DNA of 39,726 bases, taken from an uncultured Oscillospiraceae bacterium (GTDB taxonomy: Bacteria > Bacillota > Clostridia > Oscillospirales > Oscillospiraceae). Positions 19,021 to 39,698 of this stretch are shown here, piece after piece (position 1 is the first letter of the stretch; every line of letters starts with the position of its first letter). Where the stretch lies: positions 1-39,726 of the forward strand of contig CALWOA010000020.1 in NCBI GenBank assembly GCA_944382965.1, given 5' to 3'. A program made the translations under genes and the position numbers. The notes beneath the pieces were generated by a model. The model was given only the letters and a program-made list of their open reading frames with translations, was not told the origin of the DNA and ran no database searches.

Positions 19021-19104
19021 TTATTTCATCATCCCAACAATCTGGGAGAAGCTGCCCAAAATAACAGTCACTGTGCCATACCAAAATTCTACCAGGCTTC
19101 CCAT
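19021..19104 (-). CDS. 27-residue hydrophobic mini-ORF
   Basis: ATG 19104 to TAA 19021 encodes a 27-residue peptide rich in hydrophobic and aromatic residues (MGSLVEFWYG start, IVGMMK end), with one Glu and one Lys. GGGGAGG (19112-19118) sits exactly 7 bases before the ATG, a strong ribosome binding site. The strong terminator at 18964-18994 follows the stop. It is the last open frame of the TerY-type operon, 105 bases after the lipoprotein gene. The peptide could be a small membrane protein, a type I-toxin-like peptide or a leaderless bacteriocin-like peptide. I do not recognise a family. The frame is also open upstream to 19206. Confidence 0.45.
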   Translation of the reverse strand: MGSLVEFWYGTVTVILGSFSQIVGMMK

Positions 19105-19209
19105 ACGGAAACCTCCCCGCAGAACAGCTCCGAAAGAGTATTTTCCGCTTGGCAGTGGATGTTGTTTGTTCAAAGAAGCGTAGAAATACCAAGAACAGGA
19201 AAGCAACTT

Positions 19210-19806
19210 TTATTCGAACACCGGCATATAGGCATCAAAAGCAACATCGCTGATAACGGTGTCCGTATACTCCGAACCATGAAATACAGAATCAATGGTA
19301 ATCCGTACACTGTCTGTTACAACAGGCTCAGATAGTACCATTGCCTGACCTTCCATCATGTCCTTCAGAGTAAATTGCATGGTGCTTCCATCTGAAAAAG
19401 TCACGGTAACGTGCTCGGGGCGGGAATTATCCAGGTAACGACTCTTGTCATACTGATTGCCCGGGAAAATATAAATTGCATTCAGCAAATAGCTGTCGTA
19501 GAAACCAAATTCTACATACTCACCAATGCCATCACCTGGAACACCTTCCGTCCAGTTGGTTTTTGTATTGCCATCGAGTAAATTCACCGCATCATGGGTT
19601 GCACGATCACCACTATATGTAGAGCTGGCAGCAGTGGTCATGACCGGATTGTCAACCTGTACCCACTGAACTTCAACTTCTTGAGTTGGTGACTGCTCCT
19701 CCTGAACAAAACTTCCAAGTAAGGAACTGTCGGGGATAACATTTTTACACGCTGCTAAAGATATAGCCATACAGGCTGCCAGAAGTAAAATTCCTATTTT
19801 TTTCAT
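19210..19806 (-). CDS. Lipoprotein with NADase-type glycan-binding/discoidin-like domain
   Basis: 198 residues. Signal peptide with lipobox ISLAAC (Cys20), a short linker, then a beta-sandwich domain from about 55 to 195 (ASSTYSGDRATHDAVNLLDGNTKTNW ... YVEFGF ... AIYIFPGNQ ... VTVTFSDG ... VRITIDSV). The DGNxxTxW and surface strands match the F5/8 type C-like 'NADase-type glycan-binding domain' seen in many Firmicute surface proteins. It would sit on the outer face of the membrane and bind carbohydrate. GGAGG precedes the ATG. It lies at the 3' end of the phospho-signalling operon, which suggests an exported output or sensor part of that system. Confidence 0.7.
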   Translation of the reverse strand: MKKIGILLLAACMAISLAACKNVIPDSSLLGSFVQEEQSPTQEVEVQWVQVDNPVMTTAASSTYSGDRATHDAVNLLDGNTKTNWTEGVPGDGIGEYVEFGFYDSYLLNAIYIFPGNQYDKSRYLDNSRPEHVTVTFSDGSTMQFTLKDMMEGQAMVLSEPVVTDSVRITIDSVFHGSEYTDTVISDVAFDAYMPVFE

Positions 19807-19900
19807 ATTTTTTCCTCCGTCTGATTCTTTTCACATTTTTCCGCAGGATCTGAAACAGTGATCTGCAGCTGTTCTGTGGCCGTTTTGCGTCTGAACTGTC

Positions 19901-20992
19901 TCAGAAAGAACCCGGGTCAATTTGGGATGTTTCCAGATCTCCTCCTACCACTTCGTAAAGGGTAATTTGAATTGTTGAATAGTAAATACTGGAGCCATCT
20001 CTGGTTGAGGTAAATTCCAGGATATCTTCCGCCTGGGTGTAAGAGGTACTTTCTCCAAACAGAGCTTCCTTGTTAAACCAATATTCTCCAGTGGCATATT
20101 TGGCAATATAATTGCCATCTTTCACTTTGATCAGGGCTTCTTCGCCAGCACGGACATAAAATAGTGCGTACTTGGAAGGGTCATCCACATTTTCAAGCTT
20201 GATGCAGGCATCCCGGCTTCCTGCAGAAACGGAAAACTCACAGTAACCCCAGCCAATATTATTTTGGAAAATTTGTCCACTCCGGGGACGCTGCTGTTCC
20301 AAGCGCTGATAGATTTTTTCACGCAGGGTTTGGCCAGTTTCAGAAGTACCAAAATAGTCTTCCACTGCATTCAAAGTATCCAGGGCCTCTTTCGTCCTGC
20401 CGCTATTATACAGCGCCTCTGCATTGCCTGTACCGGCATCTCGGCAGCCGTAATAAGCTTCTCCGCCATAGGCGCAATTTGGAAAATTATCCCACACAAT
20501 GACATAAAGCTGATAGGCATCTACATACCGATGCTGCTGCATGAGTCTGCCTGCATCTTCCATGACCAGGGCCGCATAGGTTTGAATTGCAGCGTCAATC
20601 TTATCATAGCCGGTGATCCTGTCATGTACAACAGCTGCCCGGGCTGCATTATAGGCCTGATTTGCTGCAATAATTGCAGGTCCACTATCTCTTGTGATCG
20701 GTTCTGGGAGAGCATCGATTGCGTTTTGCGCTGTTTCCACCAGCCCGACCAATCTTTCCAGTTCTGCTCGGGCAGCCACTAAAACCTCATAGTTATCCAC
20801 ACGGTTTCGATCTTTTTCCGATAGTTCTGCATACAGTTTCTCTGCTGCTTCAATATCTTCACGTGATTCTATCGTAACAAAACCGATATTTTTGATTGCT
20901 CTTTCCACACGGTATGATTTCAAAATGCCAAATCCGAACAGAAAATACACGCAGCATAGCAGTAAAAGCAGGATACTGATTTTCCGTTTCAT
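19901..20992 (-). CDS. Membrane-anchored protein: helical repeats plus beta-rich C-terminal domain
   Basis: 363 residues. One N-terminal TM or uncleaved signal (about 5-24). Then an all-helical part (about 45-235) with TPR-like pairs (YVDAYQLYVIVWDNFP, AEALYNSGRTKEALDTL). Then a beta-rich domain (about 245-350) with YVRAGEEALIKVKDG, YATGEYWF, LFGESTSY. The last part looks like an outer-surface beta-sandwich, but I cannot name its family. GAGGT precedes the ATG by 6 bases. It is co-oriented with the zinc-domain gene (54 bases upstream) and the glycan-binding lipoprotein, so it is likely part of the same system. Confidence 0.6.
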   Translation of the reverse strand: MKRKISILLLLLCCVYFLFGFGILKSYRVERAIKNIGFVTIESREDIEAAEKLYAELSEKDRNRVDNYEVLVAARAELERLVGLVETAQNAIDALPEPITRDSGPAIIAANQAYNAARAAVVHDRITGYDKIDAAIQTYAALVMEDAGRLMQQHRYVDAYQLYVIVWDNFPNCAYGGEAYYGCRDAGTGNAEALYNSGRTKEALDTLNAVEDYFGTSETGQTLREKIYQRLEQQRPRSGQIFQNNIGWGYCEFSVSAGSRDACIKLENVDDPSKYALFYVRAGEEALIKVKDGNYIAKYATGEYWFNKEALFGESTSYTQAEDILEFTSTRDGSSIYYSTIQITLYEVVGGDLETSQIDPGSF

Positions 20993-21046
20993 CTTTCTAC
21001 CTCTTCTTAATTGTAAAAATATGAAAAATATTTTTGCTTCTGCGTA

Positions 21047-21406
21047 TCAGATGTTGGAAGTAATATCAATTCTATCCACGTTGCCGCCCAATTCACCAGA
21101 CCAATTGCACCACTGGCAGGTGCTGGTTTTTGAATGCCCGTCATAGCAATTCAGATGGCCGCAGCAATAGAAGAAATACCGATTTCCGCAGTAGGGGCAT
21201 CCCGGGTATTCCTCGCCTGTAAAGAAACGGCCGGAAATAGTTAGCCGGTCATACTTTTCGCCGGCGGCGGCTTTTTCGCTGAGAGGGAATGCCCAGGTCA
21301 TGATCCAGTCATTTCCCTGGGGCTCAAAACGGATACCGTATAGCTTTCCGGTTTTTACACACTTGGATAACCCAATAACCGCTCTTACTTCATCCATTAT
21401 CCTCAT
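21047..21406 (-). CDS. Stand-alone TerY-C-like zinc-binding protein
   Basis: 119 residues. The C-terminal half carries a cysteine cluster YPGCPYCGN ... YCCGHLNC ... CQWCNWSG, the pattern of the TerY-C metal-binding domain that is normally fused C-terminal to the TerY vWA domain. A beta-rich N-terminal part (ISGRFFTGEEY) precedes it. Here it is a separate gene overlapping the end of the PP2C gene by 17 bases; the start could also be ATG 21397. It likely binds zinc and acts as an adaptor with the vWA protein encoded two genes upstream. Confidence 0.7.
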   Translation of the reverse strand: MRIMDEVRAVIGLSKCVKTGKLYGIRFEPQGNDWIMTWAFPLSEKAAAGEKYDRLTISGRFFTGEEYPGCPYCGNRYFFYCCGHLNCYDGHSKTSTCQWCNWSGELGGNVDRIDITSNI

Positions 21407-22910
21407 CCTTCCTGTCTGATTCTTCGCGTGCGCTTAATTCCTCCAATGCGGTTTCGATGGCTCTCAGGGCCTCCTGAGCCTGCTTATATTTGCTTTTATA
21501 CGCCTGGTACTCCTGCTGTGCTTTATCCACATTTTTTTGCAATGTGGCGATCTGCTGTAAAAGGAATTCCTGCTTTGCAATGTATTCCTGCGTTTCTTGC
21601 GGTTTTTTTTCAAACTGTACAGCATCTGCAGGATGATATTGGGGAATATTGATAATATTCCGGCACGCTTCTTCGATTGCAAATTTGGGAAAGGCATCAT
21701 CCTGCTCCTGCTTAAGTTTCTCTGTATCTGATTCGAATGCAGTATATTCTTGGCGCAGGCGATGAAGCGTATTTTCGCATTGTTCTTTTTTTGTTTGTAA
21801 GTCCGTCAGCTCATTGAACAGTGCATCCAACTGTCGCCGCAGGATATCCAGCTTCCTTGGCATATCCTCATTCAGCCGTTTCCGGTATTCCTCTTGTTTG
21901 TACTGAAGAACGTAAATTTTCTCTTTCCGATCATATGCTTCTGCAATTTCCTGAAATTCCGCAGTGTGGGAGGACAGTGCATCCAAATCCACGATTCCTG
22001 CCACAGAAATATCATCCCGACTGCCTTCTGTGCTGAACTCCGGCAGCGTCTGTTCCAGGTAATTTAGAAAATTCGGAAGTCCGTGGGCAATCAGCTTACA
22101 AGAAAGCTTCCGGTAAAACACATGTGTGCCTTCCATATTGCGGAAAGAATCTTCCACACCATCGCTTCCCAGATAGCAGGCCAAAATGGGCTTCTCCGAC
22201 AGATCGATCACACAAGTCCGGACACTGACAGCTGCGTCGGCATCGCATAGGGAAGTGGTGACATTCCCCTGACAGCGATCATCCCAAGGAATAGGCTGAT
22301 CTACAGAACCATCCTGATAAAAGACATCGCACCGTCCATCTCCCTGATGCAGCAAAATCAGCATATCATCCACCAATAATGCGGCCATCAGAGTAGTCCC
22401 ATAAAAGTGCTCCAGCTTTTTGCTTGCACAAGTTTGAGGATTACCTTCTTCGAAAAGATTGCTATCTGCCGCCTTAAGCCAGTAATAGTAATCTGCAGCA
22501 CTGTTGCCCACAGCCTGAAGTTCCGCATCTGTAAGAGGATTGTTGATGAGGTCGGCATAAATGGCCTGTGACCACCGGGAGAGAATTGTGTCAGTTAGCT
22601 GCTTCATGTGCTGCTCCCGCTTTCTGGCCAAGAACAAGTCTTCTTTGATGGAGTCAAGCTCTGTATCCGGGTGCAGAACCGCCTCAGCAAAGATTCTCAA
22701 ACAGTCCAATGCAATGTCTACAGCTTTTTGGGCGCCGGCTCCACTGCGTACACAGGCAGGATCGCCATGTCCATCTGCCACCGCAGCGATGTAATACTTT
22801 TCGTTTTCCTGTACAGACGCAAAGGAGGTGGAAGCATCCTCACAGGGAGTGCCTCGCCCGATATGGGAGGCACCTCGAACCGTTTTATGAAATACATCGT
22901 ATTTTTTCAT
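21390..22910 (-). CDS. PP2C-family protein phosphatase with C-terminal coiled coil
   Basis: 506 residues. The PP2C catalytic domain (about 1-310) has the metal motifs ADGHGD (about 45-50), GDGRCD, LGSDGVEDS and SRDDISVAG. The N-terminal GRGTPCEDA form is typical of the PP2C_2 enzymes found with TerY. Residues about 320-500 are long coiled coils (DILRRQLDALFNELTDLQTKKEQ; QQIATLQKNVDKAQQEYQ), a probable oligomerisation or docking arm. It reverses phosphorylation by the kinase encoded two genes upstream. The ribosome binding site is weak (AGG 10 bases before ATG), so translation may depend on the vWA gene that ends 36 bases before it. Confidence 0.88.
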   Translation of the reverse strand: MKKYDVFHKTVRGASHIGRGTPCEDASTSFASVQENEKYYIAAVADGHGDPACVRSGAGAQKAVDIALDCLRIFAEAVLHPDTELDSIKEDLFLARKREQHMKQLTDTILSRWSQAIYADLINNPLTDAELQAVGNSAADYYYWLKAADSNLFEEGNPQTCASKKLEHFYGTTLMAALLVDDMLILLHQGDGRCDVFYQDGSVDQPIPWDDRCQGNVTTSLCDADAAVSVRTCVIDLSEKPILACYLGSDGVEDSFRNMEGTHVFYRKLSCKLIAHGLPNFLNYLEQTLPEFSTEGSRDDISVAGIVDLDALSSHTAEFQEIAEAYDRKEKIYVLQYKQEEYRKRLNEDMPRKLDILRRQLDALFNELTDLQTKKEQCENTLHRLRQEYTAFESDTEKLKQEQDDAFPKFAIEEACRNIINIPQYHPADAVQFEKKPQETQEYIAKQEFLLQQIATLQKNVDKAQQEYQAYKSKYKQAQEALRAIETALEELSAREESDRKDEDNG

Positions 22911-22946
22911 GATGCAATACCTGCTTGCTGGTTGGAATCAACCAGC

Positions 22947-23699
22947 TTACGCCCAGTCAGGATCTACCCAGGGTTCCTCAGCGCTGTAATCCGGAAGCAC
23001 TTCTACCAGATCCTGAGAGTCCACCACGCCTTGTTCTTCCGCTTCCTTTACCACATCTGCGCCGGTGGTTCCCTCCGTCTGGGTGCTGGACTGACTGCGC
23101 AGAACAGAAGACGTGACAGATACAAAGCGCATCAACTTCGCAAAGACTTCCAAATCGGTTGTCCGGATGACGGCCTCGCTGTTTCCAACCACTTCTGCAA
23201 TCATCTTCACATCCGCATCACCCACTGCGAAGCCAATCTTGGTTGCCCGGCGGAACATCTTGTTCTGCCGGATGATGTCCAACTGCTTTTTATAATTGTC
23301 TGTTGCATAACCGTCGGACATGAAAATGATGATCGGCATATAGGCGCCTGCCAAGGATTTCATGAAAACATCGTCCTGGAGTTTGCTGTTGAGTTCCTTC
23401 ATAGCGGCTCCCACCTCGGTCAATCCGCCGGCAGTCAAATCCTCCCAGATAAAATCCTCCAGAGCAACCGGACCGCTGTTGTTGAGCCAGTGAACATCCG
23501 ATGCGAAGGACATGACAGCGATTTTCAGTTCTGCATCCGCGTTCTTTTCAGCCACCTCTTTTAAAGCCTCGGTCGTTTCCCGCATTGCACGGTTTAAAGT
23601 GGCGATGGACTCACCTTCCATACTTCCGGAAGTATCCAGAACGTAGAAAATGTGCAGTGCACGACGAGGGGTTTCTTTCAGATTGTCAATGATAGGCAT
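22947..23699 (-). CDS. TerY-like von Willebrand factor A protein
   Basis: 250 residues with a full MIDAS: DTSGSM (22-27), a Thr in GGLTEVG and an Asp in IFMSDGYATD. The length and the PIIDN..ETPRRALHIFYVLDTSGSM start match TerY-type vWA proteins. The C-terminal ~50 residues are acidic and low-complexity (STQTEGTTGADVVKEAEEQG). The TerY-C zinc domain is absent and is encoded separately at 21047-21406. GGAGAG lies 7 bases before the ATG. Together with the kinase and PP2C genes on either side it forms the TerY-P triad known from tellurite-resistance-type stress systems. Confidence 0.9.
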   Translation of the reverse strand: MPIIDNLKETPRRALHIFYVLDTSGSMEGESIATLNRAMRETTEALKEVAEKNADAELKIAVMSFASDVHWLNNSGPVALEDFIWEDLTAGGLTEVGAAMKELNSKLQDDVFMKSLAGAYMPIIIFMSDGYATDNYKKQLDIIRQNKMFRRATKIGFAVGDADVKMIAEVVGNSEAVIRTTDLEVFAKLMRFVSVTSSVLRSQSSTQTEGTTGADVVKEAEEQGVVDSQDLVEVLPDYSAEEPWVDPDWA

Positions 23700-23784
23700 A
23701 AGTGTTCTCTCCTTTTTCCGTGTATTAATTCAAATAAACAGCAAATCTGCTGATATCTATAACGATGGGGTGATGTTTGAGGAA

Positions 23785-25095
23785 TTATGCTTCTCCTTCA
23801 ATTTTAATTGTGGTATCAAATACCGTGAAACTGATGCCCGGCATCATGGGAATTCGTTCCTCCGGGCCAACGCGTTTGCTCTTGCCGCTGGGGGTTTCCG
23901 CATCCCAGATCTTTGTACTCTTGTTTTTCAGGTAAAGTCTGCGCGGATCGGCATCGTCACGCTGAATCACGCCTACGGGCATGGTTGCCTCGTCTACGTT
24001 GCATACACCAAGCTGTGTCCGGTAAATCCGAGCGCCGGCAATGGCGGGAATGGCATAGCTGGGGAACACCAGTCTGGCTGGGATACGGATGGGTCTGCGG
24101 CAGCATTCGCAGGTGGTGGATTTGCCCTGGTCGGTGAATACCTCATTTCCGCACTGGCAGGCAATGATCTCACTGCGGAAACGCACCAGATTTTTAATCC
24201 AATCCCGTTCCAGAATACGATGGCTGGGATTCAGCAAGGCGTCCTGAGAGAATGCTTTTAAAAACAGGTCTTTCATGTACTGAGGCAGGTAGCTCCACAG
24301 CATGCCAATGTTACAGTGCACTTTGGGATCAGGGGCATTGGCCTTGTTCTGCGGGTCCATAATGAACAAAGGCTCCGAACCATAGAGCTTCTTCTGCAGT
24401 TCCTCGGTCATAACAGGCTCCAAAGAACGTCTTCCTTCCAACGGATGTGTCAGGGTAAAGAGAATAAACAATATTACCGACATGGAGAAAGCGTCGCTGG
24501 CTGTATTGGGAAGATTCTTGCCAATAACAACCTCAGGTGCCATGTAACGAGGCTTACCCAATATACCCATATTGGTTCCATTGGGAGCGACATTTTCGTT
24601 GTCACAGATCAAAACCTTGCCGGTTTTGGGATGGATGAAGAAGTTGCCATCGTTCAAGTCCTGATAACTGTAGCCCTTGATATGCAGACTGCGGTAAGCC
24701 TCCGTGATAGACAGCGCCGCATCGATGATGGTTTTGAAAGACGCAAAGCGAACCCGGGTCAGCATATACTCTCCCACTTCATAATAATCCGCAGGGCGCA
24801 GATCCATGATGTAACCAAATACGCCGTTTTCCCATTCCGTCAGTGCTTCAGGCCATAAAAACGCGCTGCTGGGTGTTCCTTTCTGAACCAGGTTTTCCAG
24901 ATTCTCCCGGAAGGCCAGGTGATCTTTACCCATACCATTGGGCTTGTACCACTTCATGGCCATTTTTTTGCCATTGCAGTCCACCTGGTAGACCACACCC
25001 TGACCGCCTTCACCCAGCTCTTTTTCCACAATGATCTCTGCTCCGCTCATCAGCCGCACACGCTTTCCCAGCGGCAGCTTATAATCCTTTGCCAT
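23785..25095 (-). CDS. Divergent Ser/Thr protein kinase with zinc ribbon and FHA-like tail
   Basis: 436 residues. Kinase lobe: glycine loop GEGGQG (28-33), Lys48 (MAMKWYK), catalytic loop YSYQDLNDGN with Asp146 (HRD is replaced by YQD), metal Asp165 (CDNEN in place of DFG), APE (187-189) and SDAFS (200-204). After it come a zinc ribbon (CQC at 313-315, CECC at 329-332) and a beta-rich C-terminal domain (about 355-436; LYLKNKSTKIWDA ... GISFTVFD) that looks FHA-like. No transmembrane segment. AGGAG precedes the ATG. It is the kinase of the TerY-P triad, with vWA and PP2C next in the operon. Confidence 0.88.
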   Translation of the reverse strand: MAKDYKLPLGKRVRLMSGAEIIVEKELGEGGQGVVYQVDCNGKKMAMKWYKPNGMGKDHLAFRENLENLVQKGTPSSAFLWPEALTEWENGVFGYIMDLRPADYYEVGEYMLTRVRFASFKTIIDAALSITEAYRSLHIKGYSYQDLNDGNFFIHPKTGKVLICDNENVAPNGTNMGILGKPRYMAPEVVIGKNLPNTASDAFSMSVILFILFTLTHPLEGRRSLEPVMTEELQKKLYGSEPLFIMDPQNKANAPDPKVHCNIGMLWSYLPQYMKDLFLKAFSQDALLNPSHRILERDWIKNLVRFRSEIIACQCGNEVFTDQGKSTTCECCRRPIRIPARLVFPSYAIPAIAGARIYRTQLGVCNVDEATMPVGVIQRDDADPRRLYLKNKSTKIWDAETPSGKSKRVGPEERIPMMPGISFTVFDTTIKIEGEA

Positions 25096-25107
25096 TCTTC
25101 TCTCTCC

Positions 25108-26141
25108 TTATTTAAAAATAAAGTCCAGTAGGTTCTGCTTATAATACGTCAATTTTACCCCTTCAGGAAAAGCACCAGGGGTCACCTGGCAGTTTTTTGA
25201 CAGTGTAACACTCATCAGCTTGGTACACCCTTGGAATGCCTCGGAAAATATTTTTGTTACACTATCGGGAATTGCGATAGTTGCCAAGCTGGTACAGCCC
25301 TGGAAAGCACCAGAAATATGCGTCACACTGTTGGGAATTGTGACACTCGTCAAACTGGTACAATCCTGGAAAGTGCCAGAAATAAGATACTTCACTCCGT
25401 AGGGGATGGAGACATTGACTAGTCTGGTGCAGCCCTTAAATGCCCAATGACCAATCTCTGTCACACTGTCGGGAATTATGATACCAGCTAAATTGGTGCA
25501 GTCCGCAAATGTGCCATCGTCAATGTTGGTCACACCGTCGGGAATTGCAATATTCACCAAATTGGTGCATCCTCTAAATGCCCAAGGACCAATTTCTGTC
25601 ACACTGTTGGGGATGTATATATCTGTCAGGCTGGTACACTCCTTGAATGCCTCAGCGTCAATCTTTGTTACACAATTTGGGATAGTCAAGGAACTTACCT
25701 TATCCCACCCCAACTTGAGAACATCTGATTTTTTCAGGATAGAACCATAAAAGAAACTAATGGGCGGTGCGGGTGGTACCGGGGCAGGGGAAGGGTTATG
25801 GTGAGGGGCTGGATTGGTGTTGTGGGATTCACTGGTGGTCTGGGCTGGGCGGGCGTATGCACCGTTGCGTTCAAAGCATATGCCCACTGACGGAGTCCTT
25901 CTTCAGCAAACAGTGGAGAAATACCGTAATCTTTCTCTAATTGAGAAACAAAATGATAAACCTCGGTCTGGGATAAGGTGCCGCCGCTGCGGCGAATTTT
26001 CTCCACAATACCAATCTCATAGAGACATTCCATAACCCATGCTGTCCGTTTATCCACCCCGCAGTCCCGCAAAATTCCTCTGAGTATAGTGTGATCCAGA
26101 AAACTGCCCTGCTTTTGCTGTATGATCGTTTTGAATTCCAT
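25108..26141 (-). pseudogene. BspA-like LRR_5 protein, frameshifted
   Basis: Two overlapping open frames make one gene. 26141-25734 encodes an N-terminal helical domain (RGILRDCGVDKRTAWVMECLYE ... LRQWAYAL) like that of the next gene upstream, followed by a proline-rich linker. 25887-25108 continues in the -1 frame with the rest of the linker and about eight LRR_5 repeats (AFKECTSLTDIYIPNSVTEIG type). The shift lies in the C/CA-rich linker (about 25750-25870). No classical slippery heptamer is seen there, so a lost base (mutation or sequencing error) is more likely than programmed frameshifting. The ribosome binding site AGAGG before ATG 26141 is good. Unlike its neighbour it has no transmembrane helix, so it should be cytoplasmic. 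It ends 12 bases before the kinase gene. Confidence 0.75.
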
Positions 26142-26188
26142 TCGCTTACCTCTTTTGCTGGTAAAGGTTTACCCATATTTCGACACAG

Positions 26189-28384
26189 TTAATCAAAATA
26201 TGCAATATCTACCCACTCTGGAATTGCGTTGCTTTCTACGCTGCACTTTGCGGGAATGACAATACTTGTCAGGCTGGTACAATCTTCGAATGCAGACCAG
26301 GAAATCTTCGAGAGGCTCCTGGGAATGGTGATATTGGTTAGACTGATGCAGCGCTGGAATGTACTGGTGTTTATCACTGCCACGCCGTTGGGGATGTTGA
26401 TGCGGGGCAGACTGATGCAGCCGGAAAATGCAGAAGAACCGATTTCTGCCACGCCATTGGGGAGGGTAATGTTTACCAAACTGGAGCAGCCCTCAAAAGC
26501 ATAGTCGTCAATCTTTTGGACACTCTTTGGAAGGGTGATGGTGGCTAAGTTAGTGCTGTCCTTGAAAGTACGATAGCCAATCTCCATTACTCCGTTGGGA
26601 ATGCTGACATGGGTCAGACTGGAGCAGCCCTCAAAAGCAAAATTGCCAATCTCAGTCACGCCATTGGGAATGTTGATGCCGGTCAAATTGGAACAGCCCT
26701 GGAAGGCACTGGAGCCGATCGTTGTTATGCTGTTGGGGATGGTGATATTTGTCAGGCTGCTACAACCTTGGAAAGTGCCGGAATCAATCACTGTTACGCC
26801 GTTGGGAATGTTGATGCTGGTCAAACTGGAACAGCCCTCGAAAGCACGGACGCTAATTGTTGTCACGCTGTTAGGAATGTTGATGCTGGTTAAGCTGGAA
26901 CAGCCTCGAAAAGTCTCCCAACCAATCTCCGTCACCCCGCTGGGAATGGTAATATTCTTCAGCTTTGTACAGCCGGAGAATGTACCATTGCCTATCGACT
27001 GTATGTCGCCAGGTAGTGACAGCTGTGTTAAACTTGTGCAGTTCAAGAAGGTATCATATCCGATATCCAATAGACCTTTGGGAAGCTTTACATTTGTCAA
27101 GTTATTGCAGTTTGCGAAAACGCCTCCGCCCAGATCAGTGATGCCTTCTGAAATGCTGACTGACTTAATTTCATTTCGTTGGGAATACCAAGGAGCGGCT
27201 TCGGTATTGAGATTGTCATCAACATACAGACTCCCTTCGCCGGATATAGTCAAATGACCCGATGCATTCAGTTCCCATGTAATATTTTCTCCCACGGACC
27301 CGGATGTAGGGCGGCCATCCACAACGGTCATATCAGGTGGGAAGGAAAGATAGGAGTATTTGCATTGATCACTTAACTGCAAAGCTGTTAAACTGGTTCC
27401 TTTAAACGCATAAGATTCTATGACCGACACACTGCTGGGAATTTCCAGTTCACGTAAGCTTTCGCAGCCGAAGAAAGCGTGGGCCCTGATGTTTGCCAGA
27501 TTGTTAGAAAGATGTACATTTTCCAGATTTGTACAGTCATAAAAAGCTTCATTGCCAATCTCACTAACAGAATCCTCCATGGCGACATGGGTTAGACTCG
27601 ATAAATATTTGAAAGCATTGGAGCCAATATATGTGATACCATCTTCAACCGCAATGGAAGTAATCTCATCTGCCAGATCTTTCCAAGGAGAAGGATTTTC
27701 GTAAGAAAAATCCGGCATCGCGCCGGTTCCGGAAACCGTCAAGACACCTTCCTGTAAATTCCACTGAATTGTTTCGCTTATCTCGCCATGTGTTAAAAGA
27801 GATTGGGTTTCTTTCGCTGTATCAGACACAGGTAGTGCGGTAGGAACCATGTCAGCAAATAAGCTGATCAGAATCAAAAATGCAAACAAGACTGCCAGGG
27901 TACCCAGAAGTGTTTTTACCTCTTTGGATAGCTGCTTTTGTTTGGGAGAGGAAGAGTTTGCCGATTGTTTGAGCGAAGCCTTCAGATAGTGACATAACTT
28001 TGCTGTGAGGGCTTGGGCGCTGCGCAAACTTGGCTCTATATAACTACGCAGGGGCTTTTTTTGAACTGGCAGGGGTACGCTTTCCAGCTTTACTCCAAAG
28101 GCTGCAGCCCAATGCTGAATGCCATCCTCCACAAACTTCTGGGATGTACCATACTTCTTTTCTTGCAGAGTGACTAGTTTGTAGATTTCTGTCCGAGACA
28201 ATACACCACCGCATTGACGGATTTTATTCACGATACCGTCCTCATAGAGGTTCACCATGACTTGGACCGTTCGATTATCCATACCACAGTCCCGCAGCAC
28301 ACCTTCGACGGTTCTACTGGATGCGAGGCAATCTGGATTTTGCTCTATGGTAAATTTTAAATTCATATCTTTCCGATTCATCAT
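26189..28384 (-). CDS. Membrane-anchored BspA-like leucine-rich-repeat protein
   Basis: 731 residues. The N-terminal helical domain (about 8-100; VEGVLRDCGMDNRTVQVMVNLYEDG ... VEDGIQHWAAAFG) is shared with the next gene. Then a basic/Ser-Lys linker, one TM (about 158-178) and an outer part of LRR_5 repeats in two blocks, each opened by a beta segment (WNLQEGVLTVSGTGAMPDF; WELNASGHLTISGEGSLYV). The last block has about 13 repeats of 23 residues with consensus FxGCSSLTxIxIPNxVTxI. No signal peptide: the TM makes a cytoplasmic N-domain and an outer LRR arm. ATG 28384 or 28381 is preceded by GAGGGAG. It is the first intact gene of the triad operon and a plausible sensor feeding the kinase. Confidence 0.85.
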   Translation of the reverse strand: MMNRKDMNLKFTIEQNPDCLASSRTVEGVLRDCGMDNRTVQVMVNLYEDGIVNKIRQCGGVLSRTEIYKLVTLQEKKYGTSQKFVEDGIQHWAAAFGVKLESVPLPVQKKPLRSYIEPSLRSAQALTAKLCHYLKASLKQSANSSSPKQKQLSKEVKTLLGTLAVLFAFLILISLFADMVPTALPVSDTAKETQSLLTHGEISETIQWNLQEGVLTVSGTGAMPDFSYENPSPWKDLADEITSIAVEDGITYIGSNAFKYLSSLTHVAMEDSVSEIGNEAFYDCTNLENVHLSNNLANIRAHAFFGCESLRELEIPSSVSVIESYAFKGTSLTALQLSDQCKYSYLSFPPDMTVVDGRPTSGSVGENITWELNASGHLTISGEGSLYVDDNLNTEAAPWYSQRNEIKSVSISEGITDLGGGVFANCNNLTNVKLPKGLLDIGYDTFLNCTSLTQLSLPGDIQSIGNGTFSGCTKLKNITIPSGVTEIGWETFRGCSSLTSINIPNSVTTISVRAFEGCSSLTSINIPNGVTVIDSGTFQGCSSLTNITIPNSITTIGSSAFQGCSNLTGINIPNGVTEIGNFAFEGCSSLTHVSIPNGVMEIGYRTFKDSTNLATITLPKSVQKIDDYAFEGCSSLVNITLPNGVAEIGSSAFSGCISLPRINIPNGVAVINTSTFQRCISLTNITIPRSLSKISWSAFEDCTSLTSIVIPAKCSVESNAIPEWVDIAYFD
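26229..27140 (-). repeat. Tandem degenerate ~69-bp repeats coding for LRR_5 units
   Basis: The 3' half of the LRR gene is a run of about 13 degenerate 69-base units (23 codons each) with recurring AACAT(C/T)CCCAACGG-like blocks. Neighbouring units are similar enough to allow slippage or recombination that changes repeat number. A shorter array lies in the second LRR gene (about 25200-25680). Confidence 0.75.
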
Positions 28385-28573: not shown

Positions 28574-28740
28574 CTAATAAAAAGTGCGACAAACATATAA
28601 TGCAGAAATGCAAAAGGTGCTCTTATAGAGATTTACCATGATTTCAACCGTCCGACGATCCAGGCCGTAGTCCATTAAACACCCCGTACTGTTTGCGCAT
28701 ATGTCAAATGTGCGTGTATGACACGCATCAAATCCTGCAC
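28574..28740 (-). pseudogene. Decayed third copy of the LRR-protein N-terminal domain
   Basis: Minus-strand translation from a GTG at 28740 gives ...HLTYAQTVRGV. After a -1 shift at a T run it continues LMDYGLDRRTVEIMVNLYK and then ends at TAG (28574-28576). This aligns with VEGVLRDCGMDNRTVQVMVNLYE of the 731-residue protein and RGILRDCGVDKRTAWVMECLYE of the frameshifted one. The relic breaks off before the second half of the domain and has no LRR part. It shows that the operon once had at least three genes of this kind. Confidence 0.65.
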
Positions 28741-36176: not shown

Positions 36177-36213
36177 TTGATTTTTCTCGTCAAATTGGCT
36201 ATAATTGACGAGA
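36177..36213 (+). promoter_or_regulatory. Fic promoter with a 9-bp dyad around the -10 box
   Basis: TTGATT (36177-36182) and TATAAT (36200-36205) are 17 bases apart. TCTCGTCAA (36185-36193) and TTGACGAGA (36205-36213) form a perfect inverted repeat that brackets the -10 box, and a related TTTTCGTCA lies upstream at 36165-36173. This is a textbook repressor site; the Fic protein's own winged helix is the obvious candidate ligand. Confidence 0.7.
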
Positions 36214-36233
36214 ATAGTTATGGAGGTGACGAG

Positions 36234-37271
36234 ATGCGCCACTTTGATTATGCAAGTCTGATAAACAAAACATGGGATAACGAGATCGTCAACTATCTGA
36301 CCCTTATCCACGAGTATAAAGGGAAGCAGTCAATATATATCCAGCAACGGCCGCAGGAGTTGGAGCGGTTAGTCGAGATTGCCAAGGCGCAGAGCACCGA
36401 AGCATCCAACTCAATTGAGGGTATCCGCACGACGGAAACGCGCCTGCGCCAACTTATGAGTGAGCGGACAACCCCTCGCAACCGTGACGAAAAAGAAATT
36501 GCCGGTTACCGCGATGCGCTAAATATCGTGCATGAGAATTTTGACTATATTCCGCTAACGCCGAACTATATTCTGCAGCTCCATAAGATTCTGCTGAGTC
36601 ATACCGATTCTGCCTTTGGTGGCAGCTTCAAAAATGTGCAGAATTATATCAGCGCAACAGATGAAGCAGGAAATCGATTTACACTGTTCACACCGCTGGC
36701 TCCCTATGAAACACCCGATGCAATGCGGGAAATCTGCGAAGAATACAATCGTGCCATTGGCGAAGGGAAAGTAGATCCGTTGCTGATTATCCCTGTATTC
36801 ATTCACGACTTCCTGTGTGTCCACCCCTTCCTTGATGGCAACGGCAGAATGTCCCGGCTGCTCACGACCTTGCTGCTGTACCGTGCCGGTTATGAAGTAG
36901 GTAAATATATTTCGCTGGAAGCCAAGATCGCAAAGAATAAGGATGCCTACTATGCTTCCTTGGAGGATTCGCAGGTTGGCTGGCACGAACAGCAGGACGA
37001 TCCCACTTCGTTCGTGAAATATCTTCTGAGCACCATTATCGCTGCATATCGCGACTTTGATGATCGTATCCAAATCGTCAGTCCTACATCTCTCGATACG
37101 GTGAGGAATGCCATCAATAATAAGCTCGGCAAGTTCACGAAGAAGGATATTCTGGAACTTTGCCCAGCTCTTAGTGCCTCCACCGTGGAGCGCCACCTGA
37201 AGAAGCTGGTCGCAGACGGCTATATTGCCAAACATGGCGCTGGCAAGAATACATTCTATGCGAAGCAATAA
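36234..37271 (+). CDS. Fic-domain protein (AMP-transferase type) with inhibitory helix and winged helix
   Basis: 345 residues from ATG 36234 (GGAGG 7 bases upstream). N-terminal Fic_N region with inhibitory motif [S/T]xxxE[G/N] at 58-63 (SNSIEG), Fic core motif HPFLDGNGR (197-205) with catalytic His197, and a C-terminal winged-helix-like domain (KFTKKDILELCPALSASTVERHLKKLVADGYI). It is a class II Fic protein, predicted to transfer AMP to a protein target and to be held inactive by its own helix. The dyad in its promoter suggests autoregulation. It is followed by a DUF6680-like gene and a DNA methyltransferase. Confidence 0.88.
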   Translation: MRHFDYASLINKTWDNEIVNYLTLIHEYKGKQSIYIQQRPQELERLVEIAKAQSTEASNSIEGIRTTETRLRQLMSERTTPRNRDEKEIAGYRDALNIVHENFDYIPLTPNYILQLHKILLSHTDSAFGGSFKNVQNYISATDEAGNRFTLFTPLAPYETPDAMREICEEYNRAIGEGKVDPLLIIPVFIHDFLCVHPFLDGNGRMSRLLTTLLLYRAGYEVGKYISLEAKIAKNKDAYYASLEDSQVGWHEQQDDPTSFVKYLLSTIIAAYRDFDDRIQIVSPTSLDTVRNAINNKLGKFTKKDILELCPALSASTVERHLKKLVADGYIAKHGAGKNTFYAKQ

Positions 37272-37351: not shown

Positions 37352-37870
37352 ATGTCACCGTTTGAGATTATCATTGCAGTAATCAATATTTTAGCAATTG
37401 TTATCATTCCAATCCTTGCGGTTTACCTTGGGCGAAGTTTGCAGGATAAGTCCGAAAGACGCAAAGACAAAATGCAGATTTTCCAGTGCCTGATGACAAG
37501 AAGAATTACAGGCTGGGCGGGTTTGGATACAGTTAATGCGCTCAATTCAATTGATATCGTATTTTCGGATTGCGAGACCGTTAGAAAGCAGTGGGCAGTG
37601 TTGCTTTCGAAATATAGACCCGATGTAACTCCACAGGAGCAATATCGAGAGCAGTGCAAGTTGCTGGAGCTGATGGCAAATGATTTGGGATACAAGGATA
37701 AGATTACTTGGGATATTATTCAGAATCCTTACTATCCTGAAGGACTGGCAAAACAAATAGAGATCAACTCGCAAATTTTGGATGGCCAAGTTGCTTGGGC
37801 GAATGCCGCTGGCCAGTTTTCGCAATTAATTGGGAAAACCCCGAAACAGGAGGACAAGAACCATGCCTAA
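37352..37870 (+). CDS. DUF6680-like membrane protein
   Basis: 172 residues from ATG 37352 (GGAGGA 7 bases upstream); a 5' extension of the frame to 37298 lacks a site. One N-terminal TM (about 4-26), then a helical cytoplasmic part (DKSERRKDKMQIFQCLMTRRI ... LLELMANDLGY). The 'RRKDKMxIFxxLMxxR' segment is that of DUF6680, a family with no known function. The stop overlaps the methyltransferase start by 8 bases, so the two are co-translated. Confidence 0.65.
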   Translation: MSPFEIIIAVINILAIVIIPILAVYLGRSLQDKSERRKDKMQIFQCLMTRRITGWAGLDTVNALNSIDIVFSDCETVRKQWAVLLSKYRPDVTPQEQYREQCKLLELMANDLGYKDKITWDIIQNPYYPEGLAKQIEINSQILDGQVAWANAAGQFSQLIGKTPKQEDKNHA

Positions 37871-39698
37871 CCTATCACAGATAAAGCGGGAGCGCATGTT
37901 GGCGTTCTTGCAGAAGATAAAAGACGAGCACCGGGATGATGACGATATGCTCATCGCCCTAGGTGAAATCGAGAGTGAGCTGACCTCCAAGAAGTATGGC
38001 CTTGTGTGGGAGCAGCATGAGGAAGCCGTTGATGTGATGATGCGGGACAATATTCCCGTATTCACCGAGGTGCCGGAGCGGGAGATCACTGCAGCACCCG
38101 GTCAGGGCTACAACTTCATTCTGGAGGGTGACAATCTCCACTCTCTCCGGCTACTCGAGAAAACCCATAAGGGAAAGATTGATCTCATCTACATTGATCC
38201 CCCATATAACACAGGCAATAAAGACTTTGTATATGATGATGCTTTTGTGGATAAGACCGATCTGTTCTCCCACTCGAAGTGGCTGTCGTTTATGGACAAG
38301 CGGTTGCGTGTTGCACGGCAACTTTTAAGCGATAAGGGTGTTATTTTCATATCCATAGACGACAACGAAGATGCACCATTGAGAATGTTATGTGATGATA
38401 TTTTTGGAATAGACTGTTTTGCAGCAAATATCTCTTGGCAACGTACCTACTCGGCAAGAAACGACTCTAAGGGAATTGTTACTGAGGTAGAACATCTGCT
38501 TGTTTATAGCCGTTTGAATACATGGAGTCCTAAAAAGCTTCCTCGCACAGCGGAAATGGATGCAAAATATAAAAATCCGGATAACGATGTAGCAATGTGG
38601 CGTACAAGCGATGCTTTTGCGCCAGGAGCAGTTACACACCAAGGCATGGTATATGCAATTCAGCACCCGTTTACCGGCAAGCTTATATATCCAAGCAAGG
38701 GAGCTTGCTGGAGATATCAGCAAGATACAATGCTTGAAATTATGCAAGGTTGGTGTGAATATGAGCTGAAGGAATTGGATGATGCCAGTGAAAGAGCCAA
38801 GGTTTGCGGTATTACCGCTGATGAAGTTCGCAAGGGAGTAAAGGCAATTATGCTGTCTGAGTCTCTTGAGATTTCAGCGCAAAAAGCCCAGACTGTATAT
38901 GACCGTGGACAATGGCCTCGATTTTTCTTTACCAAGGGTGGTAAAGGAGGAATTGCTCGAAAGACCTATCTAGATAATGTTGGTGGAAAGCTACCTTCAA
39001 ACTTCTGGCCTTATTCAGAGGTAGGACATACCGATGAAGCAAAAAAAGAATTGCTCGCTATTTTTCCAGGAAAAGCACCTTTTGATACGCCCAAACCTAC
39101 AAGACTGATGGAACGAATCCTTCAAATTGCATCTGCTGATGATAGTATCATTCTGGATTTCTTTGCAGGCAGCGGCACGACTGCCCATGGTGTTTTAAAG
39201 TACAATGTAGCGAATCCCAAAAGCAAGCGAAGCTTCATTCTCTGTACCAATAACGAGAGCGGCATCTGCGAAAATGTTACCTATCCCCGTGTAAAGACTG
39301 TTATTACCGGAAAGAGAACAGACGGTAGCAACTATGCCGACGGAATCCCTGCCAATATCAAATATTACCGCACCGATTTTGTTTCCAAGGACGATGAATA
39401 TCTCTCCGATGCCCTGCTGGAACACATTAGGGAAATGATCCAGTTGGAGCATGGTGTCAAAATTGACGGCAGCCGGTATCTGATGGTTATGAGCGACGAG
39501 GAAGCCGATGAATTGCAGGCACATTGGAGCGAATACGAGGGTGTAAAGGCAATATATGCCTCCAAGGACATCCTGTTCACCACGGAGCAGAATGCACTCT
39601 TTGCCGGTGTGGAGATCCACACGATCCCTGACTACTACTTTAACTTTGATAGTGGTGAGCAAAATGCATCCGCAGTCCAAAGCTTAAAAGCGGAATGA
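37863..39698 (+). CDS. Type III restriction-modification Mod-like adenine DNA methyltransferase
   Basis: 611 residues from ATG 37863 (AGGAGG 9 bases upstream; a start at 37830 lacks a site). Motif IV DPPYNTGNKDF at 112-122, followed by TRD-containing middle and motif I DFFAGSGTTAHG near residue 432, the beta-class order. N-terminal and C-terminal flanks (KIDLIYIDPPY; YADGIPANIKYYRTDF; LEHIREMIQLEHGVKIDG) match Mod subunits of type III systems. It transfers a methyl group to adenine. The middle (about 38380-39130) is visibly more AT-rich than both ends, suggesting an exchanged target-recognition domain. A Res subunit would be expected after 39698; only 28 bases follow in the window. Confidence 0.85.
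   Translation: MPNLSQIKRERMLAFLQKIKDEHRDDDDMLIALGEIESELTSKKYGLVWEQHEEAVDVMMRDNIPVFTEVPEREITAAPGQGYNFILEGDNLHSLRLLEKTHKGKIDLIYIDPPYNTGNKDFVYDDAFVDKTDLFSHSKWLSFMDKRLRVARQLLSDKGVIFISIDDNEDAPLRMLCDDIFGIDCFAANISWQRTYSARNDSKGIVTEVEHLLVYSRLNTWSPKKLPRTAEMDAKYKNPDNDVAMWRTSDAFAPGAVTHQGMVYAIQHPFTGKLIYPSKGACWRYQQDTMLEIMQGWCEYELKELDDASERAKVCGITADEVRKGVKAIMLSESLEISAQKAQTVYDRGQWPRFFFTKGGKGGIARKTYLDNVGGKLPSNFWPYSEVGHTDEAKKELLAIFPGKAPFDTPKPTRLMERILQIASADDSIILDFFAGSGTTAHGVLKYNVANPKSKRSFILCTNNESGICENVTYPRVKTVITGKRTDGSNYADGIPANIKYYRTDFVSKDDEYLSDALLEHIREMIQLEHGVKIDGSRYLMVMSDEEADELQAHWSEYEGVKAIYASKDILFTTEQNALFAGVEIHTIPDYYFNFDSGEQNASAVQSLKAE

What the first reader, a model, noticed from the sequence alone, without database searches (positions are those of the whole stretch)
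19021..28384. TerY-P-type kinase/vWA/PP2C triad coupled to LRR proteins and a glycan-binding lipoprotein
On the minus strand the run is: membrane LRR protein, frameshifted LRR protein, zinc-ribbon kinase, TerY-like vWA, PP2C, TerY-C-like zinc protein, TPR-like membrane protein, NADase-type glycan-binding-like lipoprotein, 27-residue mini-ORF. Kinase, PP2C and TerY vWA form a known triad linked to Ter stress systems (established knowledge). What I have not seen described is a triad bracketed by an LRR protein with a cytoplasmic domain, one TM and an outer LRR arm, and by exported proteins. A plausible model is surface or peptide sensing that feeds a phospho-switch. No TerC/TerD/tellurium gene is nearby. 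This is my main candidate for a new system.
Basis: partly seen in the sequence, partly recalled or inferred. Interest (0 to 1): 0.85.

Follow-up and report, generated by a model that had tools for sequence, protein, structure and literature searches.

The report
Plug-in adaptor for bacterial defence switch
A bacterium carries a known protein switch (kinase, phosphatase and metal-binding partner, of a kind that can fight viruses), and the proteins beside it share a small unnamed domain that, in many other bacteria, joins the same switch to very different sensors and DNA- or protein-processing parts.

Summary
The genes are real; the core is a TerY-P triad (kinase with zinc ribbon, TerY-like vWA, PP2C, TerY-C), a kind known to protect against phage. 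The new part is a ~100-residue domain (ND) at the start of both LRR proteins: a confident helical bundle (pLDDT 90) matching no Pfam family or solved fold. In 33 loci with this kinase, from Clostridia, Bacteroidota and one gammaproteobacterial plasmid, ND proteins lie within 10 kb of it in 22. Of five triads found by the kinase alone after the profile was fixed, four have ND beside them. What ND carries varies: LRR, WG, Sel1 or MORN repeats, FGE-sulfatase, helicases, a Hhe-like helicase-nuclease, FtsK, ClpA and ClpX docking domains. Five triads follow BREX brxL. Best reading: ND is an EAD-like adaptor that plugs sensors or effectors into a phospho-switch, probably for phage defence. The lipoprotein and TPR genes have no counterpart in the other triad loci, so that half of the finding fails. 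Nothing was tested at the bench, ND is absent from some triads and occurs in a few places without one, and the 2012 TerY-P paper could not be read.

The parts
28619..28740 (-). degenerate third copy of the N-domain (frame broken), upstream of LRR protein 1
   Evidence: pieces in two frames resemble the intact copies
26189..28384 (-). LRR protein 1: N-domain + one TM helix + BspA-type LRRs
28061..28378 (-). N-domain (ND) of LRR protein 1, six to seven helices, AF2 pLDDT 90.3, pTM 0.80
27854..27910 (-). TM helix of LRR protein 1, N-in/C-out by charge
25734..26141 (-). LRR protein 2, N-terminal frame: second ND (25836-26141) + Pro-rich linker
25108..25887 (-). LRR protein 2, C-terminal frame: BspA-type LRRs, no TM; separated from its ND by a frame break in the linker
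23785..25095 (-). Ser/Thr kinase + C4 zinc ribbon + beta-rich C-terminal domain (DNxN in place of DFG)
22947..23699 (-). TerY-like vWA protein with intact MIDAS motif
21390..22910 (-). PP2C-type phosphatase; C-terminal part resembles coiled coils (weak matches)
21047..21406 (-). TerY-C zinc protein
   Evidence: PF15616; blastp relatives in 10 of the 16 loci, in L035-L037, L091 and L096
19901..20992 (-). membrane-anchored TPR protein; linkage elsewhere not supported
19210..19806 (-). lipoprotein with NADase-type F5/8C domain; linkage elsewhere not supported

Best explanation
The locus is a TerY-P-type phosphorylation switch (kinase-zinc ribbon, vWA, PP2C, TerY-C) served by a dedicated adaptor domain, ND. 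ND docks a replaceable module onto the triad: here two BspA-type LRR proteins, one membrane-anchored with its LRR outside. In the model the LRR (elsewhere WG, Sel1 or MORN repeats, or FGE-sulfatase domains) binds an invader- or damage-related molecule; ND-ND or ND-triad contacts shift the kinase/PP2C balance; phosphorylation then turns on linked effectors, which in relatives are helicases, nucleases, FtsK, BREX, or Clp-type proteases reached through ND proteins that carry ClpA and ClpX docking domains. Shown: gene content, intact catalytic motifs, ND homology, its predicted fold, its link to the triad in three phyla, payload variety, BREX or nuclease context in relatives. Inferred: physical docking, direction of signalling, ligand, and that this copy acts in phage defence.
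For: ND found in 17 loci, and refound in each of the 17 when its own locus was left out of the profile (E 7e-5 to 8e-28); none among 1,958 reversed ORFs. Unbiased test: five triads found by the kinase after the profile was fixed (G981, G1004, G1014; plasmids of Prevotella sp. E2-28 and Methylomonas sp. AM2-LC); four have ND within 10 kb, the plasmids with four and five ND proteins starting right after PP2C. Same 391 genomes of the window's class: kinase in 6, ND in 5, shared 4. Same 218 genomes of a Bacteroidota order: 4 and 4, shared 3. Fisher p 8e-8 and 9e-6; 4e-6 and 4e-4 without the starting genomes (see evidence against). Payloads. Payload change: ND of L011:13708 (WG repeats, by eye) and of L012:7013 (LRR) are 58% identical. 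BREX pglZ-brxL directly before the triad in L008, L009, L015 and L020, the end of brxL in L017; in L020's genome brxC, pglX and an ND-WG protein lie upstream in the same run. ND on a PDC-S37/Hhe-like protein in L092. TerY-P protects Pseudomonas against phage (PMC10889362, passages) and is described as acting against T7-like phages (PMC7699616, passage).
Against: 9 of 33 kinase loci show no ND on the stretch or contig examined (L006, L008, L009, L014, L021, L038, L039, L042, L093; L009, L014, L021 and L042 are cut by contig ends), so ND is not essential to the triad. All 11 near-kinase matches, 14 of 17 and the four shared genomes of the class sample were seeds of the profile, so their detection is by construction. 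Nine matches were not seeds: three beside a triad (G801:C61, G981, G1004), two about 16 kb from one (G797, G802), two in kinase genomes but with no triad within the stretch fetched (G071:C35, G503:C75), two in genomes without a kinase match (G272, near a contig end; G988, weak and partial). Fisher's test ignores ancestry, and loci are not independent: kinases of L014, L015, L016 and L020 are 94-99% identical, of L010-L013 76-87%. The G1004 ND is weak (E 4e-4) and a local search at E 0.01 missed it. No ND copy is fused to a core triad protein, unlike EADs. LRR protein 2 here is split by a frame break. No PADLOC TerY-named model matched the window proteins.
Confidence: 0.64

Rival explanations
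1. Kinase-toxicity module like KKP: phage blocks the PP2C, unleashed kinase activity stops growth, and ND proteins are mere targets or scaffolds of the kinase.
For: Kinase and PP2C motifs intact; KKP works this way (PMC11341870, abstract).
Against: One kinase, not two; vWA and TerY-C have no KKP counterpart in that abstract; with TerY-P most cells survive infection (PMC10889362, passages); it does not explain the varied payloads.
Confidence: 0.18
2. Envelope or surface-stress signalling unrelated to phage: the outer LRR and the lipoprotein sense host or cell-wall ligands and set a phospho-switch.
For: LRR protein 1 is predicted membrane-anchored with its LRR outside; the TPR protein has an N-terminal TM and the NADase-domain protein a lipobox.
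Against: 5 of 7 ND-LRR proteins near triads lack a TM outside the ND; helicase, nuclease and BREX contexts in relatives; TPR and lipoprotein not linked elsewhere.
Confidence: 0.13
3. Ter-type metal sensing or stress response: the vWA and zinc proteins sense metal and the neighbours are incidental.
For: TerY and TerY-C domains.
Against: ND co-conservation; defence genes beside several relatives that were scanned, though ter genes were not searched by profile.
Confidence: 0.05
4. Chance adjacency or hitch-hiking of unrelated mobile genes.
For: Patchy distribution: no kinase match in the 9 other same-genus genomes listed, and 6 of 400 in the family, own genome included; two relatives lie on plasmids.
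Against: Co-occurrence and tight spacing in three phyla.
Confidence: 0.03

Closest known systems
TerY-P triad (Anantharaman et al. 2012 and Gao et al. 2020, not seen themselves; as cited in PMC11090510, PMC7699616, PMC10889362, passages)
   Same: kinase with zinc ribbon, TerY-like vWA, PP2C; defence context
   Different: adds ND-linked interchangeable modules, which the passages read do not mention
Effector-associated domains (EADs) and bacterial Death-like domains (PMC7159879, PMC8195603, passages)
   Same: small terminal helical domain, often several copies per locus, fused to repeats, FGE-sulfatase and other effectors
   Different: no copy on a core protein; no match to Pfam models, EAD1 among them; core is TerY-P, not MoxR-vWA or GTPase
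GAP1-N2 GTPase systems, third theme (PMC7159879, passage)
   Same: kinase + zinc ribbon + beta-rich domain beside PP2C and a lone vWA
   Different: described as actinobacterial and centred on GAP1-N2; ND not mentioned in the passage; GAP1 not searched for here
KKP kinase-kinase-phosphatase (PMC11341870, abstract)
   Same: antiphage kinase/phosphatase balance
   Different: two kinases, prophage module, no vWA in the abstract
BREX
   Same: some relatives of the triad lie inside BREX operons
   Different: no BREX core gene among the 11 window proteins scanned with PADLOC
MADS kinase MAD6
   Same: best PADLOC match of the kinase, E 6e-14
   Different: partial match; below the NCBIfam cut-off for MAD6; no other MADS protein matched among the window proteins scanned

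Membership tests
TerY-P triad | Ser/Thr kinase with C-terminal zinc ribbon | tested here: met
   Pkinase; C313, C315, C329, C332 invariant in 14 sequences
TerY-P triad | TerY-like vWA with MIDAS | tested here: met
TerY-P triad | PP2C phosphatase in the same run | tested here: met
TerY-P triad | match to a PADLOC TerY-P model | tested here: inconclusive
   no TerY-named model matched at E 1; whether the library holds one was not checked
TerY-P triad | antiphage activity | not testable with these tools
   none
EAD / Death-like adaptor | small non-enzymatic terminal helical domain | tested here: met
   C-terminal position in two L097 proteins
EAD / Death-like adaptor | further copies in the locus, on different payloads | tested here: met
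   two or three copies in 7 of the 17 loci (window, L010, L011, L012, L018, L022, L035), payloads differing in some; four in L096 and five in L097
EAD / Death-like adaptor | one copy fused to a core component | tested here: not met
   no match at E 0.05 in 27 kinase, 22 vWA, 22 PP2C and 11 TerY-C sequences (best 0.054)
EAD / Death-like adaptor | sequence match to EAD models or to Death-fold structures | tested here: not met
   no EAD or Death name among Pfam matches at E 1 (25 members) or among the Foldseek rows shown (50 of 92, none at E 0.001); one search shows Pfam holds EAD1
EAD / Death-like adaptor | homotypic interaction | not testable with these tools
   none
KKP | two kinases plus one phosphatase | tested here: not met
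   one kinase in the run
BREX | PglZ, BrxC and PglX in the same locus | tested here: not met
   none among 11 window proteins scanned; seen only in relatives

The most novel reading that the evidence does not exclude
ND marks an undescribed, polymorphic signalling platform in bacteria: a new adaptor class, convergent with Death/EAD domains, lets one kinase-phosphatase-vWA switch be rewired to LRR, WG, Sel1 or FGE-type sensors and to BREX, helicase-nuclease, FtsK or Clp/Hsl-protease outputs. It would be a bacterial counterpart of LRR-receptor-to-kinase immunity, with phosphorylation choosing what is destroyed.
Probability: 0.42. Interest if true: 0.88.

Novelty: new variant of a known kind. Interest (0 to 1): 0.74.

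Why it matters
TerY-P modules protect against phage, but in the papers seen what they sense and act on is left open. ND gives a sequence handle: a protein carrying it is a candidate input or output of the switch. That makes binding, phosphorylation and deletion tests direct, and it points to a modular LRR-to-kinase route, and perhaps a route to Clp proteolysis, in bacteria.

Tried and rejected
Lipoprotein and TPR as conserved parts: rejected. ND as a known family: Pfam gave only scattered weak matches, best 0.00045 in one member. The PDB sequence search gave one match to an engineered protein (4rzp, 40 residues, E 9e-7), taken as chance helical similarity, and six at E 0.4 or worse. Foldseek found nothing at E 0.001 or better. 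The kinase C-terminal domain is beta-rich in the model, but its fold was not identified: kinase domains filled the rows shown (50 of 2,000) and phmmer gave nothing. ND copies in one locus as nearest relatives: true for 6 of 15; in L010-L012 copies are related by position instead. ND by tblastn in plasmids: none with the L011 ND; the L097 protein found itself and, by its payload part only, an hslU gene. The kinase in phages: one partial match of 26% identity, not followed. Literature: the listings of searches showed no paper on an ND-like domain with TerY-P (only the top of long lists is shown); Anantharaman 2012 is not held and may report some of these neighbours. Seen as passages: PMC11090510, PMC7699616, PMC7159879, PMC8195603, PMC12839542, PMC10889362; term search without hits: PMC13092281; abstract and section list: PMC11341870.
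Full report
What is there. The window is contig C20 of a 2.63 Mb draft genome in 60 contigs, by its relatives a clostridium. The kinase has its G-loop, K48, D146, N151 and D165, with DNxN where DFG is usual, and a C4 zinc ribbon, all invariant or nearly so in 14 aligned sequences. The model shows a kinase fold and a beta-rich tail. vWA and PP2C have their metal-site motifs. This fits the TerY-P triad as described in PMC11090510 (passages).

The overlooked element. Both LRR proteins start with the same domain of about 100 residues (ND). A profile built from triad neighbours found 26 ND matches in 17 loci, one of them weak (L019:2930-9916). It refound ND in all 17 when each locus was left out in turn, and found nothing in 1,958 reversed ORFs. 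The AF2 model from 16 sequences has pLDDT 90.3 and pTM 0.80, with six to seven helices. No Pfam family covers it (25 members scanned) and no solved fold matches at E 0.001 or better.

Is ND tied to the triad? ND lies within 10 kb of the kinase in 22 of 33: the 17 loci plus L091, L092, L095, L096 and L097. In L015 and L020 it lies about 16 kb away on the same contig. The nine without are L006, L008, L009, L014, L021, L038, L039, L042 and L093; L009, L014, L021 and L042 are cut by contig ends. The loci are not all independent.

How much of this is circular? The profile (A1, 25 rows) was built from triad neighbours. All 11 near-kinase matches are its seeds, as are 14 of the 17 matches. So those calls show that ND is scarce elsewhere in these genomes (2 of 13 lie away from the kinase), not that it is found near. 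Nine matches were not seeds: three beside a triad (G801:C61, G981, G1004), two about 16 kb from one (G797, G802), two in kinase genomes but with no triad on the stretch fetched (G071:C35, an LRR protein; G503:C75, a TM protein), and two in genomes without a kinase match (G272, its gene ending 117 bases before the contig end; G988, weak and partial). The unbiased count is by kinase: of five triads first found by the kinase after the profile was fixed (G981, G1004, G1014, two plasmids), four have ND within 10 kb. The G1004 match is weak (E 4e-4) and was missed by the local search at E 0.01; without it the count is three.

Two samples were searched with both probes. Window's class, 391 genomes: kinase in 6, ND in 5, 4 shared, all four seeds; ND in 1 of the 385 without kinase. 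Bacteroidota order, 218 genomes: kinase in 4, ND in 4, 3 shared, one a seed. Fisher p is 8e-8 and 9e-6; without the starting genomes 4e-6 and 4e-4. The test ignores ancestry.

What ND carries. By Pfam: BspA-type LRR (window twice, L012, L018, L022, L037, L041), WG repeats (L010, L012, L013, L094), Sel1 (L007, L036), FGE-sulfatase (L017, L019), UvrD helicase (L023), DEAD-type helicase (L022), DUF4011-helicase-MTES_1575 (L092, and L019 with a weak ND), DUF6273 (L040, L057), MORN (L095). TM segments without a family in L035; no family in L011:15954, L018:8613 and L091; a sub-threshold match in L016. On the Prevotella plasmid ND proteins include one annotated as formylglycine-generating enzyme family and an FtsK. 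On the Methylomonas plasmid five ND genes follow PP2C: one with Sel1 repeats, one with weak similarity to HslU (E 0.007), one without a match, one with the ClpA N-domain (E 1e-43) and one with the ClpX zinc-binding domain (E 2e-29); in the last two ND is C-terminal and the matched part does not extend to the ATPase. ClpA-N and the ClpX zinc domain are docking domains for adaptors and substrates (recalled), so regulated proteolysis may be one output.

In L010-L012 the ND before the kinase and the ND after PP2C are related by position (67-72% and 43-58% identical; the two downstream ND of L011 are 53% identical), while the payload after PP2C differs: WG repeats in L011:13705 (by eye), LRR in L012, at 58% ND identity. 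That looks like module exchange on a constant adaptor.

Defence context. In L008, L009, L015 and L020 the triad follows pglZ and brxL directly (the L015 pair is assigned by its sequence cluster); L017 has the end of a brxL there. In L020's genome, brxC, pglX and an ND-WG protein lie upstream in the same run. L092 fuses ND to a protein matching the PADLOC models PDC-S37 and Hhe. TerY-P protects Pseudomonas against Autographiviridae with most cells surviving (PMC10889362, passages). In the window the nearest defence-like genes seen are a Fic protein and a type III methyltransferase 8-11 kb away.

Mechanism. I favour a docking model: ND brings a sensor or effector to the kinase/PP2C/vWA core, and recognition shifts phosphorylation. 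Shown: parts, motifs, linkage, payload variety. Inferred: contact, ligand, direction, phage. The nearest idea in print is the EAD principle (PMC7159879, PMC8195603, passages), but one of its marks, a copy on a core component, was tested and not met, and no EAD model matched. I therefore say it works like an EAD, not that it is one.

What fails. The lipoprotein and TPR protein gave no match in the other triad loci, and among 49 other genomes each only weak or partial matches (1 and 4). Outside sensing is not general: 5 of 7 ND-LRR proteins lack a TM helix outside the ND. LRR protein 2 is split by a frame break in its Pro-rich linker; whether this is decay or an assembly error cannot be told.

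Verdict. The value lies in ND: an adaptor that appears undescribed in the listings of searches. The 2012 TerY-P paper was not available, so prior notice is possible.

Noticed in passing
window 36177-37271 and 37830-39698, + strand: Fic protein (PADLOC SoFic model E 2e-41) and a type III DNA methyltransferase (E 9e-134) at the contig end: a second defence-like patch.
   Followed up: partly
window 28619-28740, - strand: Broken third ND copy upstream of LRR protein 1, suggesting a lost ND gene.
   Followed up: partly
L097:17924-18805 and L097:18798-19418 (Methylomonas plasmid CP157007.1): ND fused to the ClpA N-domain and to the ClpX zinc-binding domain, with the match not reaching the ATPase: a possible tie of the triad to Clp proteolysis.
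   Followed up: partly
L016:13213-14310, L020:13207-14304, L017:4087-5247, L091:419-1561, L092:14118-15218, L096:17233-18327: A recurrent gene of about 365-386 codons beside Bacteroidota triads, with weak GRAM/Voldacs similarity in L016: a possible further component.
   Followed up: partly
L095 (G801:C61): Second triad in the same genome, with two vWA genes in tandem and an ND-MORN protein.
   Followed up: partly
window 19021-19104, - strand: 27-codon ORF coding for a hydrophobic peptide after the lipoprotein gene.
   Followed up: no
L018:1134-3674: Dynamin-like GTPase directly before the kinase in the Ruminococcus locus.
   Followed up: no
G000 and same-genus genomes: No kinase match in the 9 other same-genus genomes listed, so the locus may be acquired.
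   Followed up: no
phage record MT835511.1, 32641-33609: A distant relative of the kinase (26% identity, 75% of the query) in a phage from human faeces.
   Followed up: no
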